Origin: Nodularia sp. LEGE 06071
GTDB lineage: Bacteria > Cyanobacteriota > Cyanobacteriia > Cyanobacteriales > Nostocaceae
Direction of reading: 5' to 3'
Assembly: GCF_015207755.1 (NCBI RefSeq)
Contig: NZ_JADEWH010000005.1
Location: 248,001 to 312,000 of the forward strand
Length of the DNA: 64,000 nt
The notes under the pieces were generated by a model that did not search any database, was not told the origin of the DNA, and saw only the letters and a list, made by a program, of their open reading frames with translations. A program made the translations under genes and the position numbers. This document shows positions 5,665-56,321 of this stretch, in pieces (position 1 is the stretch's first letter; each line of letters begins with the position of its first letter).

Positions 5665-6120
5665 ATGGCAGATTTCTTTGAATTTGAAGCAGATTTCGTA
5701 GACTCTCTGCGCTGCATACCTATGCAGGTGCGCTACAAATTAGATACATCTGGTATCAAGCTAAAATTATCTCATTGGCATCAAATGACTCCAGATGAGC
5801 GTGCAACTTTAGTAGAATTACCTTGCACGACGGAAACAGAAATTCAAGCTTACCAAGTTTATCTCCAGCAGCTGATTTTAGAACGCACCGGTAGCCCAGC
5901 TGCAAAACTCCCCATCGAACCTGATCCATTATGGATGGATTCTGGCATCGTCCCAGCGAGTATCCAGGAAAAAGCTCAAGAAATGGGTGTTACCCTCACA
6001 TTGCGACAATGGTCAAGTTTAACGCCCTTACAGCGCTTTGCTTTGATTAAACTCAGTCGTTCAGGACATGAAAACAAAAACTTTTCTAGAGCGATCGCAG
6101 AATTTCATCTGGCAGCATGA
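5665..6120 (+). CDS. narM: Nitrate reductase-associated protein NarM
   Basis: A cyanobacterial protein needed for active NarB, probably in cofactor insertion or maturation; its exact role is unresolved. The sequence FFEFEADFVDSLRCIPMQVR, followed by KLKLSHWHQMTPDERATLVELPC, is typical of the nitrate-reductase-associated family. I chose the ATG at 5665 because it begins MADFFEFEADF and gives 151 residues, the usual family length. In-frame ATGs at 5602, 5605 and 5620 would add up to 21 non-conserved residues. narM usually sits close to narB; here psiE-like DNA and a CRISPR array lie between them. Confidence 0.88.
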   Translation: MADFFEFEADFVDSLRCIPMQVRYKLDTSGIKLKLSHWHQMTPDERATLVELPCTTETEIQAYQVYLQQLILERTGSPAAKLPIEPDPLWMDSGIVPASIQEKAQEMGVTLTLRQWSSLTPLQRFALIKLSRSGHENKNFSRAIAEFHLAA

Positions 6121-6680
6121 CTAGATTGTATTTGTCAAGAATAAATTAAAATATGTAGTCAGAGTTACAGACTTTATCTGAAATTACTGGCAAAGAAGCT
6201 TGAGCATCTAGAGATTACCGCAGTCGGATCAGCAATAAAATTTTTCGGCACAGGATAGGACAGCTAAAATATTTTTAGTGCTGTGCCTCTACAACACTTT
6301 GCCTAAAATTTAGAAAAAATTCCTAATAAAAAACATCTGATCGCGAATAATTAACAATTTTATAAGTTTTGAAGTGAAGTAAATGTGGCGTATACTACTA
6401 ATATTTAATAATTTGTTGTGTATGGGATTGTCTAGACTATCTCATCCATAGACTCAAACTTATATAATTGACAAACAAAGCACAGAAAATTATTTTCTAA
6501 GCTAGAATGCTTGTCACTAAAGAGTTAGGCAATTTTAAATTTAAAATCAGGAAATTTAAAATTTCTTCGCAGTAAGTAAAGCTATAGTGTATTTAGCAAT
6601 GCTGCTGTTGGCGTGGTTCAAGTTAAGTCCTACTGCCACAGTATTTTTTATGAATTTGTTTGGAAAGACACTCTAACTAG
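6121..6680. other. 560-base AT-rich spacer
   Basis: The spacer separates narM from the FHA-PrsW gene. I see stop-rich frames, no tRNA-like fold and no strong terminator. It probably contains the promoter of the downstream gene, but I could not place it. Confidence 0.4.
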
Positions 6681-51928: not shown

Positions 51929-52708
51929 ATGATTTCCCTCGAAAATCACATCATTCTCATTACTGGTGCGAGTAGTGGTATCGGTACTGCTTGTGCCAGA
52001 ATCTTTGCAGGTGCTGGGGCAAAATTAATTTTAGCGGCGCGACGATGGGAACGCTTGCAGGAACTAGGAGAGACACTCAATCAGGAATTTGGCGCTGAGA
52101 TTCATTTATTACAGTTAGATGTGCGCGATCGCGCGGCTGTGGAATCTGCCATTTCCAGCTTACCTCCTGCCTGGTCTGATATCGATATTCTGATTAATAA
52201 TGCTGGTTTGAGTCGCGGTTTAGACAAGTTGCATGAAGGCGACTTTCAAGATTGGGATGAAATGATTGATACTAATATTAAGGGATTGCTTTACCTCACC
52301 CGCTATGTTGTGCCGGGGATGGTGAAACGCGATCGCGGCCATATTGTGAATTTAGGTTCCATAGCCGGACATCAAACTTATCCCGGTGGTAACGTCTACT
52401 GTGCGACTAAAGCTGCTGTCAAGGCAATTTCTGAAGGTTTAAAACAAGACTTGTTGGGAACTCCTGTGAGGGTGACTTCCGTTGACCCTGGGATGGTGGA
52501 AACTGAATTTAGCAATGTGCGTTTTCATGGTGATCATGCACGCGCTGACAAAGTTTACCAAGGAGTGACCCCCCTGACACCCGATGATGTCGCTGATGTG
52601 ATCTTTTTCTGCGTCACGCGATCGCCCCATGTCAATATCAACGAATTGATACTTATGCCTGTTGATCAAGCCAGCGCCACCCTAGTTCATCGACAAACAT
52701 CAACATAA
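51929..52708 (+). CDS. Short-chain dehydrogenase/reductase (YdfG-like)
   Basis: A 259-residue classical SDR. TGASSGIGTACA binds NADP(H). The catalytic Ser is in LGSIAGHQTYPGG and the YxxxK motif in VYCATKAAVK. PGMVETEFSNVRFHGD and NINELILMPVDQASA match the 3-hydroxy acid dehydrogenase (YdfG) group. Substrate not known. Confidence 0.9.
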   Translation: MISLENHIILITGASSGIGTACARIFAGAGAKLILAARRWERLQELGETLNQEFGAEIHLLQLDVRDRAAVESAISSLPPAWSDIDILINNAGLSRGLDKLHEGDFQDWDEMIDTNIKGLLYLTRYVVPGMVKRDRGHIVNLGSIAGHQTYPGGNVYCATKAAVKAISEGLKQDLLGTPVRVTSVDPGMVETEFSNVRFHGDHARADKVYQGVTPLTPDDVADVIFFCVTRSPHVNINELILMPVDQASATLVHRQTST

Positions 52709-53285
52709 TTAAACTCAGAAACCCGCCAAATCGACGCTTGTTGGCGCAGCCTCACAAAAAATGGTAAGTAGCTCAAACTTAAAAAACGTAATACCCAGAT
52801 CCCCGACTTCTTAGAGAAGTCGGGGATCTATATCCTCAATGTTTTATGTTTAATTATGTTGACTTACTCATAACATCCATAATTGACTACAGATAAATCC
52901 GCACCTCACAGATTATAAAACCATATATTCAAAGTTTATTAGTATTAAATAAAACTACAACTATAGATAGAGAAAATAGACATCTTCTTTAAATATGATT
53001 TTGATTAATTCAGGGATTTGCAAAAATATTTTTTTACTACAATAGCCAATACCAATTGTTCCCGTTGCCTAAGTTCAAGTATTTCCTTTTGGTTGTAAAA
53101 AGATGACTTGGTATTGTTAGCAAACAGATGTTTATATTTTTGCAAGCATATTTTTCCATAAAAATCACACTATCAAGATAATATTTGCAACCTAGATTTG
53201 TGAGCAGAAATTGCACTACACATTCTAGAAACATCTGTATTTACGCTGTCAAAAAACTTGATCACACTAGTCAAGAGGTTGATAG
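52709..53285. other. Spacer before the rhodopsin gene
   Basis: It holds a MITE-like element (52765-52871) and then about 410 AT-rich bases with no gene. AAGAGG lies 7-12 bases before the rhodopsin ATG. The rhodopsin promoter is probably here. Confidence 0.45.
52765..52871. mobile_element. MITE-like element, family 1, copy 2
   Basis: It matches the element at 22894-23001 over its full length: same TAAGTAGCTCAAACTTAAAA start, same GATCCCCGACTTCTT hairpin, same TTTTATGTTTAATTATGTTG end. Its right terminal repeat is more degenerate. Confidence 0.85.
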
Positions 53286-54206
53286 ATGCACTTGATCAAA
53301 AGACTGATTCCCGTAGCCGGGATCTCATTCATAATCCTCATACTAGCCACTCAAGTACAGGCTTTTACTGTATTTGAAGCTGGGAGATTCCCTGAAGGAA
53401 TCAACATTGAAAACTTATTTACTTATACCCCGTTGCAGTATGCCATTGTGGTAAACGTTTTTACCCTTGGTTTTGCGGCGCAAGCAGCAGGCCTGATCTA
53501 TTTTCTGGCTACACTCAGAAATGTTTCTCCCTGTTATCGAATGGTTTCAGTCTTGTCTGCTGTCGTCATGGTATCGGCATTCCTCGAACTTTTCCAGCTA
53601 GAACAGAACTGGCGGGATGCATTTGTGTTTACCGATGGTTTCTGGCGACTCGGTACTGATGTATTCGCCAACGGCTTCCGGTATATAAACTGGTCTATTG
53701 ACGTTCCTATGCTACTGCTCCAGCTAGTCATTGTCGTGGGTTTAACACAAAATCGTGCTATTTCCTACGGTAGCCAGTTGATTATTGGTGGATTGTTGAT
53801 GATCTGGACTGGATACATTGGACAGTTTTATGAAATAACAAATCTGGCTTTGTTTTGCTTCTGGGGTATCGTCAGCACCGTGTTTTATATCTATATTCTC
53901 GTTGTACTTTGGGAATTGATTTCCAGAACAGTTGGTAATTTGCCCAGTCACGTACAGGGAATAATGCGGAATATTCGCTGGTATATTCTGATAACTTGGA
54001 CTCTTTACCCCATTGCCTACGTATTGCCAGTATTATGGAGTACAGAATGGAGTATAGTAACTAGGCAGATTATTTTTATCTTTGCAGGTATAACCACCAA
54101 GGTAATCTACGGGGCTATTCTCACCTACATTGCTCGCCAGCGTAGTCAAGCAGACAATTATCAAGAGGCGATCGCTACTGTCGCTCTCCGTTCATCTATA
54201 TCTTAG
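53286..54206 (+). CDS. Microbial rhodopsin, NDQ (sodium-pump) type, helix-G Asp missing
   Basis: A 306-residue seven-helix retinal protein preceded by a cleavable-looking N-terminal segment (about 1-26, ATQVQA). Helix C reads FRYINWSIDVPMLLLQ: Arg132, Asn135, Asp139 and Gln146 fit the N-D-Q motif of light-driven sodium pumps such as KR2. The retinal Schiff-base lysine is Lys272 in GITTKVIYG. Other pump positions agree by my alignment from memory: Asp125, Ser97, Glu183, Trp238, Tyr241 and Arg260. The position four before the lysine, aspartate in KR2 (Asp251) and bacteriorhodopsin (Asp212), is Gly268. Gly194 in helix E could leave a carotenoid opening. No retinal-forming oxygenase lies nearby. 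Confidence 0.9.
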   Translation: MHLIKRLIPVAGISFIILILATQVQAFTVFEAGRFPEGINIENLFTYTPLQYAIVVNVFTLGFAAQAAGLIYFLATLRNVSPCYRMVSVLSAVVMVSAFLELFQLEQNWRDAFVFTDGFWRLGTDVFANGFRYINWSIDVPMLLLQLVIVVGLTQNRAISYGSQLIIGGLLMIWTGYIGQFYEITNLALFCFWGIVSTVFYIYILVVLWELISRTVGNLPSHVQGIMRNIRWYILITWTLYPIAYVLPVLWSTEWSIVTRQIIFIFAGITTKVIYGAILTYIARQRSQADNYQEAIATVALRSSIS

Positions 54207-54692
54207 AAGCTTGCACCGAACAGAAAGCTTTCGACTATCCTGATTAACAACAGCAAAAACAGTCAATAACCCTACCCTGTACAAGGGTGGGGCGGCAAGA
54301 TAGATCAACTCAAAAAGTAGCAATTGTAACTGGTGGAAATCGTGGTTTGGGATATGAAAGCGATCGCCAATTAGCAAAACAGGGTCAAAATTGGCTATGC
54401 CACGCAATCTATCACAGAAAATTGCTATAACTTCCTGAAATCACCAATAAAATGTGTGGGCTGATACAATATTTTCTAAATAACTATTATAGGCTTTTAA
54501 AACCCTTTACTTATACCCTTACGGCGGATATTTCCGCTAAAGAAGCACCAGAGCGATCGGGAATTACCCTAACAGGTGTCATGCACTTGTGAAATTATAT
54601 GAGTAATTTTCTTCGCCCTGGTGATTTACTTATTTTTACTTGATTAAAATAAATCGCTCTGAAGCTGCAAAAATTAATATTTTGCCATCTTT
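54207..54692. other. Spacer containing gene debris
   Basis: A 486-base stretch between rhodopsin and the convergent mscS gene. It contains an SDR remnant (54314-54394) and otherwise stop-rich sequence. A second short open stretch near 54522-54590 reads LTADISAKEAPERSGITLTG before a stop and may be part of the same decayed region. Confidence 0.45.
54314..54394 (+). pseudogene. Remnant of an SDR gene N-terminus
   Basis: 27 codons read KVAIVTGGNRGLGYE then QLAKQGQNW, the beta1-alphaB nucleotide-binding start of a carbonyl-reductase-like SDR (TGGNRGxG). There is no start codon and the frame ends soon after. It is a fragment only. Confidence 0.65.
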
Positions 54693-56321
54693 TTATAAAT
54701 TTTCACCTTTTTTACTATTACTAGGATTTTGAGATAATTTCCGTAGGCTTGCTTCCAACTCCGGCGATAACTCTAGAGGTAAATTTCCAGTACGGATATG
54801 CAAATCTCTCTGAGGAAAAGGAATTTGTATGTGATACTGCCTAAAAAGTTCTTCAATTCGGAAGTACAAATTGCTTTTAATTAAATATTGTTGACTAGGG
54901 TTCGCAGTCCAAACCATGAGTACGAAATTTAAGGAACTATCGCCAAACCCAATGAAAAAGATCGTCGGGGTGGGAATTGACAAAATTCCATTCTGCTCTT
55001 GAGCCGCTTCTAACAATGCCATTTTGACTGTAGTGACATTAGAACCGTAAGCCACACCAACCGGAATTCGGAGCCGCGAAACCGGATTCTTATAGCTCCA
55101 ATTAATCACCTTATCTTCCAGAAAGCGGGAGTTGGGTACAATAATTGAAATTTGATCTAGCGTTCGTAATAGAGTACTCCGACCACCAATGCGCTCCACC
55201 GTACCTTCTATGTCACCAACTTCCACAAAATCGCCTACCTGAATTGGGCGCTCAAACAACAAAATCACACCACTACCAAAATTTTTAGCGATATCCTGAA
55301 AGCCAAAACCGATCCCTACCCCCAAAGCACTTGCCAGAATCGTGAGTGAACTTAAATCTAATCCCCAGACCTGTAATAATACAATTGCGCCAACGATAAT
55401 AATTGTATATTTAGTGATAATTGCGATCGCTTCTTGAACACCCCTATCTATTCCCGTAAATTGTAAAATTCGAGTTCTCAAAAGGTTTGTTGCTGCACCA
55501 GCTAAAATCATTAGTCCTAATAACAGCGCTATCAAGACCAGCAAATAAATAACTGAATATTTACTTTGACCTAAAGTTAATATGGGAGATGTCAAAGTTT
55601 GAATCAATTGATTAGTAAAACGGTAGCTCCAAATGCGACTAATAGGTAATAAATTGGTAATGTAGAGAGTTACACTCACCCAAAGCCACATCCGCGCCGC
55701 CAGCAAGGTAAAATTAAATAATAAATTCAAAGCTGTGGACGAACTAGAATCTACTTCCGCCGCTTCCGGAGATAGGGGTAATCGTTGCAAAACTTCCTGT
55801 CGGGAACGTTTCCATAACCATCCTAAGAGCCTATGACCGACAAATGCTATGATCAAAAAGCTAATACTCAACAACAGGGAATTGCGAATAAACTCAATAC
55901 TTCGCTCTTTCTGAGCTTGCTGTAATCCTTCATCCAATTGTATGCTCCAAGCTTCTGCTTGTTGTTGCGGAGAGTTATTATCCACTACATCTGCCTGGGT
56001 AACAGTCAGCAGATATTGTTGATTCACAATAATTATGGGCGATTTGTTAAGTTCCTCAATTCCTACCTCAACTGGTTCCTGAGATAAGACAATCTGACGC
56101 AGCCGGAAGTTAATCAAATCTGCCCTTTGTGCGGCCGTAAATTGCTCTGCGCTACCCACTTGAAACAGCAAACGACCGTCAATACTAACAGGTGCTTGCT
56201 CTGTTGCTAAAGCCGGCGCAACTATCAACAACAGGCTGAGAAGAATCAAAATCAGAATTTTAATTTTGGTAATCCATGAACGAATGAGGTTTGATGGTTG
56301 TCGAATACGTTTTCGAGTCAT
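54693..56321 (-). CDS. MscS-type mechanosensitive channel
   Basis: 542 residues. A signal-like N-terminus and periplasmic domain (about 40-140) precede five hydrophobic helices. The pore helix region LASALGVGIGFGFQDIAKNFGSGVILLFERPIQVGDFVEVGDIEGTVERI is the MscS signature. The cytoplasmic beta and alpha-beta domains follow (LLRTLDQISIIVPNSRFLEDKVINWS). It releases solutes under hypo-osmotic stress. It is a larger member than E. coli MscS. Confidence 0.92.
   Translation of the reverse strand: MTRKRIRQPSNLIRSWITKIKILILILLSLLLIVAPALATEQAPVSIDGRLLFQVGSAEQFTAAQRADLINFRLRQIVLSQEPVEVGIEELNKSPIIIVNQQYLLTVTQADVVDNNSPQQQAEAWSIQLDEGLQQAQKERSIEFIRNSLLLSISFLIIAFVGHRLLGWLWKRSRQEVLQRLPLSPEAAEVDSSSSTALNLLFNFTLLAARMWLWVSVTLYITNLLPISRIWSYRFTNQLIQTLTSPILTLGQSKYSVIYLLVLIALLLGLMILAGAATNLLRTRILQFTGIDRGVQEAIAIITKYTIIIVGAIVLLQVWGLDLSSLTILASALGVGIGFGFQDIAKNFGSGVILLFERPIQVGDFVEVGDIEGTVERIGGRSTLLRTLDQISIIVPNSRFLEDKVINWSYKNPVSRLRIPVGVAYGSNVTTVKMALLEAAQEQNGILSIPTPTIFFIGFGDSSLNFVLMVWTANPSQQYLIKSNLYFRIEELFRQYHIQIPFPQRDLHIRTGNLPLELSPELEASLRKLSQNPSNSKKGENL

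What the first reader, a model, noticed from the sequence alone, without database searches (positions are those of the whole stretch)
53286..54206. NDQ-motif rhodopsin in a cyanobacterium, with Gly in place of the helix-G Asp
Seen: helix C carries Asn135, Asp139, Gln146 after Arg132; retinal lysine Lys272; residue four before it is glycine (GGT codon). Known: N-D-Q marks outward sodium pumps, best known from Bacteroidetes (KR2), where the helix-G Asp251 pairs with the Schiff base and Arg109. Inference: this is a sodium-pump relative whose counterion network has changed, so it may pump differently, pump another ion, or act as a sensor. An extra N-terminal signal-like segment is also unusual.
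Basis: partly seen in the sequence, partly recalled or inferred. Interest (0 to 1): 0.9.

Follow-up and report, generated by a model that had tools for sequence, protein, structure and literature searches.

The report
Sodium-pump rhodopsin missing one key residue
A cyanobacterium carries a light-driven sodium-pump gene that has lost an otherwise invariant acidic residue, in a genome that has also lost the gene for making the pump's pigment, so the pump is probably being switched off, although a neighbouring acidic residue could conceivably stand in.

Summary
The 306-aa protein at 53286-54206 has Arg132, Asn135, Asp139, Gln146 and Lys272, with Gly268 (GGT) in the KR2 Asp251 column. It lies inside the NDQ sodium-pump clade, in a seven-row cyanobacterial branch with 100/99 support. 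It has the helix-B Glu (Glu101, KR2 Leu74) that marks the ErNaR-like "Subgroup 2". Sodium-pump rhodopsins in cyanobacteria are already in print.

The Gly was found in this genome only. Both same-genus orthologs (87%, 82%) have Asp, as do 100 of 102 matched rows. It is the only break among 45 near-invariant columns. Published changes of this Asp in KR2 abolish pumping.

New here: the genome also lacks the retinal-forming oxygenase diox1. Its two flanking genes adjoin, whereas they enclose diox1 in 4 of 4 other Nodularia. All 16 other sampled genomes of the order that match this rhodopsin keep diox1. I favour a pump that recently lost function. Against this, dN/dS shows no window-specific relaxation, and diox1 is missing in 35 of 388 genomes anyway. 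Glu101 as substitute counterion, and a sequence error, remain open.

The parts
53286..54206 (+). NDQ-clade rhodopsin, 306 aa
   Evidence: ORF; Pfam Bac_rhodopsin PF01036 E 1.2e-34; KR2 E 2.5e-56; tree
53286..53363 (+). signal-like N-terminal segment, residues 1-26 (basic start, hydrophobic stretch, AQA); boundary judged by eye
   Evidence: sequence; similar starts in the 7 rows printed; low model confidence here
53586..53588 (+). Glu101, helix B, equivalent to KR2 Leu74 and ErNaR Glu64 (Subgroup 2 marker)
   Evidence: KR2 mapping; columns; paper passages
53679..53681 (+). Arg132 (KR2 Arg109)
53688..53723 (+). Asn135 / Asp139 / Gln146, the NDQ motif of helix C
54078..54080 (+). Ile265 (KR2 Thr248); Ser in L023, Thr in L024
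54087..54089 (+). Gly268, GGT, where KR2 has Asp251; GAT in L023, GAC in L024
54099..54101 (+). Lys272, retinal Schiff-base lysine (KR2 Lys255)
52870..53285 (+). upstream region that visibly aligns with the same-genus ortholog L023; start approximate
   Evidence: alignment; no strong promoter match
51929..52708 (+). short-chain dehydrogenase, left flank of the rhodopsin site in all 5 Nodularia genomes
54693..56321 (-). MscS-type mechanosensitive channel, right flank of the rhodopsin site in all 5 Nodularia genomes

Best explanation
The gene encodes a light-driven sodium-pump opsin of the NDQ clade, of the type with an extra helix-B Glu (ErNaR-like Subgroup 2), inherited within a small cyanobacterial branch. 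In this one Nodularia genome the invariant helix-G Asp has become Gly by a single-base change (GAT to GGT), and the enzyme that makes retinal from apocarotenoids (Diox1/ACO) has been deleted at another locus. I infer that without retinal the opsin no longer works, that selection on it has only recently ended, and that Asp268Gly is an early loss-of-function change. Shown: clade, Glu101, uniqueness of Gly among the sequences examined, absence of diox1 at its usual site and in the genome search. Inferred: that no retinal is available, that pumping is lost, and the order of the two events.
For: Asp in both same-genus orthologs, in 8 of 8 other rows of A1 and in 100 of 102 rows. Sole break among 45 near-invariant columns. 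KR2 D251A, D251N and D251E abolish pumping, as does D230N in BeNaR (PMC10608830 table, passage). Diox1 type, 667 bits to PDB 2biw, is in 4 of 4 other Nodularia at 93-100% identity to the G671 query and absent from G000, searched at E up to 10. In G000 its neighbours BT1 and gdhA lie together on one contig, 66 bp between matched pieces against 1636 bp in G671, with no diox1-like remnant nearby; the order BT1-diox1-gdhA holds in the other 4. The one oxygenase G000 keeps scores best to carotenoid 9,10-dioxygenases (370 bits, against 198 for ACO), a kind reported to give beta-ionone (PMC5133782 passages). The 16 other genomes of the order with a rhodopsin match all have a diox1 match.
Against: Window-branch dN/dS is 0.37, no higher than the sister branches (2dlnL 0.04) and below 1 (2dlnL 5.81); parsimony gives the window only 6 replacements to 15 silent changes, against 18 to 14 for L023. 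The frame is intact and the other 44 near-invariant columns hold. diox1 matches are missing in 35 of 388 genomes of the order (27 of 338 good ones) and, by my count of the listing, in 10 of 71 of its own family, so the coincidence has perhaps an 8-14% chance. Relatives with broken NDQ genes (G017, G102, G119, G148, G161) still have diox1, so decay does not need its loss. Retinal could come from outside, and a search for the other retinal-forming family, PF15461, is uninformative because no control rang.
Confidence: 0.58

Rival explanations
1. Working pump with a moved counterion: Glu101 on helix B takes over the role of the helix-G Asp, pairing with Arg132 and the Schiff-base region, so the Gly268 protein still pumps Na+ (or H+), with changed colour or pH response.
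For: In ErNaR the equivalent Glu64 bonds directly to the NDQ Asp and is linked through water to the helix-G Asp242 (PMC11006869 passages). Window has this Glu. dN/dS below 1 on the window branch and an otherwise intact gene. KR2 R109Q/D251N is listed as 'pump activity restored', and also as leaky, so loss of this Asp can be offset in some settings.
Against: All other Glu-bearing rows keep Asp. Arg132 is kept, unlike in the R109Q rescue. KR2 D251 mutants do not pump. diox1 is missing. I found no second change that looks compensating.
Confidence: 0.17
2. Sequence or assembly error at one base: the organism has GAT at codon 268 and a normal sodium pump.
For: It is a single-base difference in one assembly (54 contigs), and the nearest ortholog has GAT. 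The rest of the gene looks constrained.
Against: The base is inside an intact frame on a long contig, and the diox1 absence is an independent, larger change that fits real loss. No reads or second assembly of the species were available to me.
Confidence: 0.12
3. A switch to a sensor or another transport mode, comparable with rhodopsins that lack an Asp at this place (recalled: xenorhodopsins with Pro, heliorhodopsins with Ser).
For: Loss of this Asp is known in other, distant families (recalled, no call).
Against: No transducer, kinase or regulator gene adjoins: the neighbours are a short-chain dehydrogenase and an MscS channel that also adjoin in genomes without the rhodopsin. The change is a single private substitution, with Asp in the sister species.
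Confidence: 0.06

Closest known systems
ErNaR (Erythrobacter sp. HL-111), Subgroup 2 of NDQ sodium pumps (PMC11006869; abstract and passages)
   Same: NDQ motif, Glu at the KR2 Leu74 position, Leu at the KR2 Gln78 position, Arg and retinal Lys conserved
   Different: ErNaR has the helix-G Asp242; the window has Gly268. The window has a signal-like N-terminal segment. Function of the window protein is untested.
KR2 (Krokinobacter eikastus), Subgroup 1
   Same: NDQ, Arg109, Ser70, Glu160, Arg243 and Lys255 equivalents present
   Different: Asp251 is Gly268, Leu74 is Glu101, Asn61 is Ser88, His30 is Asn57, Thr248 is Ile265
Same-genus orthologs L023 (G671) and L024 (G670, Nodularia sp. LCM1.Bin15)
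   Same: 87% and 82% identity, same flanking genes, Glu101, similar N-terminus
   Different: Both have Asp at 268, and both genomes have diox1
Cyanobacterial NaRs reported in PMC7541481 (1 gene) and PMC11528372 (6 genes); passages
   Same: sodium-pump-clade rhodopsins in cyanobacteria
   Different: The passages I saw give counts only; I could not tell whether any of them is one of the loci used here

Membership tests
NDQ sodium-pumping rhodopsins (NaR) | Asn-Asp-Gln motif in helix C | tested here: met
   N135, D139, Q146
NDQ sodium-pumping rhodopsins (NaR) | retinal-binding Lys in helix G | tested here: met
   K272
NDQ sodium-pumping rhodopsins (NaR) | place inside the NDQ clade in a tree with other rhodopsins | tested here: met
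   80 NDQ rows against 8 DTE rows, branch 100/100; window in a 7-row cyanobacterial clade 100/99. NTQ chloride pumps were not in the tree.
NDQ sodium-pumping rhodopsins (NaR) | second central Asp, on helix G, described as essential for sodium transport | tested here: not met
   Gly268. Hence a member of the clade by descent, not filed as a sodium pump by function.
NDQ sodium-pumping rhodopsins (NaR) | light-driven outward Na+ transport; pentamer | not testable with these tools
   needs expression with retinal and measurement
Subgroup 2 of NDQ rhodopsins (ErNaR-like) | Glu at the KR2 Leu74 position (the criterion used in PMC11006869) | tested here: met
   E101
Subgroup 2 of NDQ rhodopsins (ErNaR-like) | KR2 Asp102 absent or substituted (a secondary trait in that paper) | tested here: inconclusive
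   D125 aligns with KR2 D102, but next to a four-residue gap
Xenorhodopsin or other sensory rhodopsin | sequence closer to that family than to NDQ pumps, or an adjoining transducer gene | tested here: not met
   best solved relatives are 8jh0 and KR2; neighbours are an SDR and an MscS channel. No xenorhodopsin was put in the tree.

The most novel reading that the evidence does not exclude
A natural sodium-pump rhodopsin that works without the helix-G Asp, because the Subgroup 2 Glu on helix B (Glu101) has taken over as the second counterion; it would show that the counterion network of these pumps can be rewired in nature and that Subgroup 2 is one base change away from it.
Probability: 0.15. 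Interest if true: 0.72.

Novelty: new variant of a known kind. Interest (0 to 1): 0.45.

Why it matters
If the favoured reading holds, this is a sodium-pump rhodopsin seen at the start of its loss: the first visible lesion is the counterion Asp, in a genome that has also deleted its retinal-forming gene, while sister species keep both. That links opsin upkeep to chromophore supply and can be tested with natural orthologs that differ little. If the bolder reading holds, the protein is a natural test of whether the extra helix-B Glu of ErNaR-like pumps can replace the helix-G Asp. Either way a direct comparison of the window protein with L023 would tell what that Asp does in Subgroup 2.

Tried and rejected
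Clade-wide loss of the Asp: rejected, since 8 of 8 other rows in A1 and 100 of 102 rows have Asp. Two-gene or sensory operon: rejected, the neighbours are an SDR and an MscS channel that also adjoin in the two Nodularia genomes without rhodopsin. A second rhodopsin in the genome that could do the pumping: none found with PF01036, 1 match in G000. diox1 missing because of a contig gap: rejected, both flanking genes are on contig C8 of G000. Other retinal source by PF15461: 0 of 5 Nodularia, but no control genome rang, so it says nothing. Window-specific relaxed selection over the whole branch: not found; the seven-taxon test that seemed to show it (omega 0.60 against 0.15, 2dlnL 9.8) lost its point when the L023 branch proved as high (0.43 and 0.49 when both are free). 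Plasmid copies: no match in the plasmid collection. A 51-base exact pattern around codon 268 gave 0 matches in viral contigs, which is no test of the question. A search for papers on rhodopsin in Nodularia gave no listed paper with the word Nodularia among the 15 shown of 175 that held two of three terms, which does not show that none exists.

Full report
What is there. The ORF at 53286-54206 (+) encodes 306 aa. Pfam gives Bac_rhodopsin, PF01036, E 1.2e-34; NCBIfam gives nothing. Against solved structures the best is 8jh0 (E 1.7e-60), then KR2 (E 2.5e-56). Read through the KR2 alignment, the window has S97, E101, R132, N135, D139, Q146, E183, R260 and K272 where KR2 has S70, L74, R109, N112, D116, Q123, E160, R243 and K255; KR2 D251 is G268 and T248 is I265. 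Codon 268 is GGT at 54087-54089.

Where it sits. The window lies on contig C5 of a 5,579,503-base genome of 54 contigs, completeness 99.86. A same-genus genome, G670, appears to be Nodularia sp. LCM1.Bin15: the match is 82% in both and the contig length 21600 in both. Of 5 genomes of the genus 3 have the rhodopsin and 2 do not. In all 5 the short-chain dehydrogenase and the MscS channel that flank the window gene lie side by side; in the two without rhodopsin I found no remnant at the site. In the order, 17 of 388 sampled genomes, the window's included, match at E 1e-8 or better; in a phylum-wide sample 7 of 386 match at E 1e-30 or better.

The Asp column. The same-genus orthologs L023 (87%) and L024 (82%) both read FADITTK or VADITTK where the window has FAGITTK, with codons GAT and GAC. 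In alignment A1, 8 of 8 other rows have Asp. Of 102 rows matched with tblastn, 100 have Asp, 1 has Gly (the window), 1 is not covered in its best segment; 94 rows are NDQ, 8 DTE, and duplicates are included. The genome-contig scan kept the best 80 of 201 relatives, so 121 weaker ones were not seen. After dropping 11 named duplicates or fragments, the 8 DTE rows and any under 240 aa, 83 NDQ rows remain; among 45 columns that are at least 98% uniform in the others, the window breaks one, D268G, while L023, L024, L002, L026, L028 and L029 break none, L042 two and L036 one of 46.

Clade and subgroup. A tree of 88 rows puts the window with L023 (100/98) and L024 (100/100), inside a seven-row branch with Oculatella, Leptolyngbya, a filamentous cyanobacterium and G017 (100/99), within 80 NDQ rows set apart from 8 DTE rows (100/100). 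Other cyanobacterial NDQ proteins form a second branch with Ile at position 101, and one from Nodosilinea lies near the Actinomycetota. Glu at 101 occurs in 44 of 102 rows, Leu in 33, Ile in 14, His in 8, 3 not covered. Glu here is the criterion for Subgroup 2 in PMC11006869, where ErNaR Glu64 bonds to the NDQ Asp105 and through water to the helix-G Asp242 (abstract and passages). The window therefore keeps two of that three-carboxylate group. NaR genes in cyanobacteria were counted before, 1 in PMC7541481 and 6 in PMC11528372 (passages).

What loss of the Asp should do. In a review table KR2 D251A, D251N and D251E are listed as without pump activity (D251E also as leaky), BeNaR D230N likewise, and NdR2 D251N as slowed and without the O-like state; R109Q/D251N is listed both as restored and as leaky (PMC10608830, passages). 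The window keeps the Arg. So by analogy it should not pump Na+ normally, but no D251G and no Subgroup 2 variant appeared in the passages I saw.

The missing chromophore gene. Carotenoid oxygenases of family PF03055 number 1 in the window genome and 2, 3, 4 and 4 in the other four Nodularia. One type, 492-494 aa, 93-95% alike between genomes, matches Synechocystis apocarotenoid-15,15'-oxygenase 2biw with 667 bits; such enzymes form retinal (PMC5133782, passages; PMC7541481 calls diox1 the retinal biosynthetic gene and found it in 152 of 154 genomes, passages). It is present in 4 of 4 other Nodularia and not in the window genome, where the only match at E up to 10 is the other type (36%). The order BT1 transporter, diox1, gdhA holds in those 4. 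In the window genome BT1 and gdhA are next to each other on contig C8, ORFs ending at 6012 and starting at 6160, with no diox1 remnant in the first 12 kb of that contig. The oxygenase it keeps is nearest to carotenoid 9,10-dioxygenases. A third type, nearest to ACO at only 200 bits, is in G671, G670 and G295; a related Nostoc enzyme, NSC3, is reported to give some retinal in vitro, and the window genome lacks this type too.

How telling is that? The 16 other genomes of the order sample that match this rhodopsin all have a diox1 match at E 1e-110 or better; several of the 16 carry broken rhodopsins. But 35 of 388 genomes lack such a match (27 of 338 of the better ones), and in the window's family my count of the listing is 10 of 71. 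The coincidence in one genome is thus worth a factor of about ten, not a proof. Broken NDQ genes in G017, G102, G119, G148 and G161 occur beside an intact diox1, and where their helix G can be read they keep Asp.

Selection. The flanking MscS gene gives 0.21 and the SDR 0.08. With distant outgroups the window branch rises to 0.60 against 0.15 (2dlnL 9.8) but L023 is then as high. So the gene evolves fast in Nodularia, has been under constraint for most of the window branch, and shows no window-specific relaxation. That fits a recent loss, a working Gly variant, or a sequence error alike.

Judgement. I put 0.58 on a sodium-pump opsin that has recently lost function, 0.17 on a working pump with Glu101 as counterion, 0.12 on a sequence or assembly error, 0.06 on a switch to a sensor or other mode. 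By descent the protein belongs to the NDQ clade; since the helix-G Asp was tested and not met, I do not file it as a functioning sodium pump. The structure model (pLDDT 80.5) adds only that the helices are where they are expected.

Noticed in passing
L018/L047, L009/L019, L015, L016, L017: Broken NDQ rhodopsin copies (stops, split frames or short fragments) in five other cyanobacterial genomes of the order, G017, G119, G102, G161 and G148; these genomes still match diox1.
   Followed up: partly
G000:C4 and PF03055 matches in G289, G295, G670, G671: Carotenoid oxygenase number varies from 1 to 4 between Nodularia genomes.
   Followed up: partly
window 54318-54480: Downstream of the rhodopsin the text reads like a short-chain dehydrogenase start (VAIVTGGNRGLGYES) without an ORF; read by eye. 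Part of this tract (about 54305-54638) also aligns with the rhodopsin-free sites of G289 and G295.
   Followed up: no
L042 (Nodosilinea sp. LEGE 07298): A cyanobacterial Glu-type NDQ rhodopsin that falls next to the Actinomycetota in the tree, support 89/62 with a long branch; possible transfer.
   Followed up: no
L033-L058 and others: The helix-B Glu type of NDQ rhodopsin is common in Micromonospora, Modestobacter, Blastococcus and Acidimicrobiia.
   Followed up: no
L023 (G671): The sister-species rhodopsin has more replacements than silent changes on its branch by parsimony (18 to 14), so the whole gene evolves fast in this genus.
   Followed up: partly
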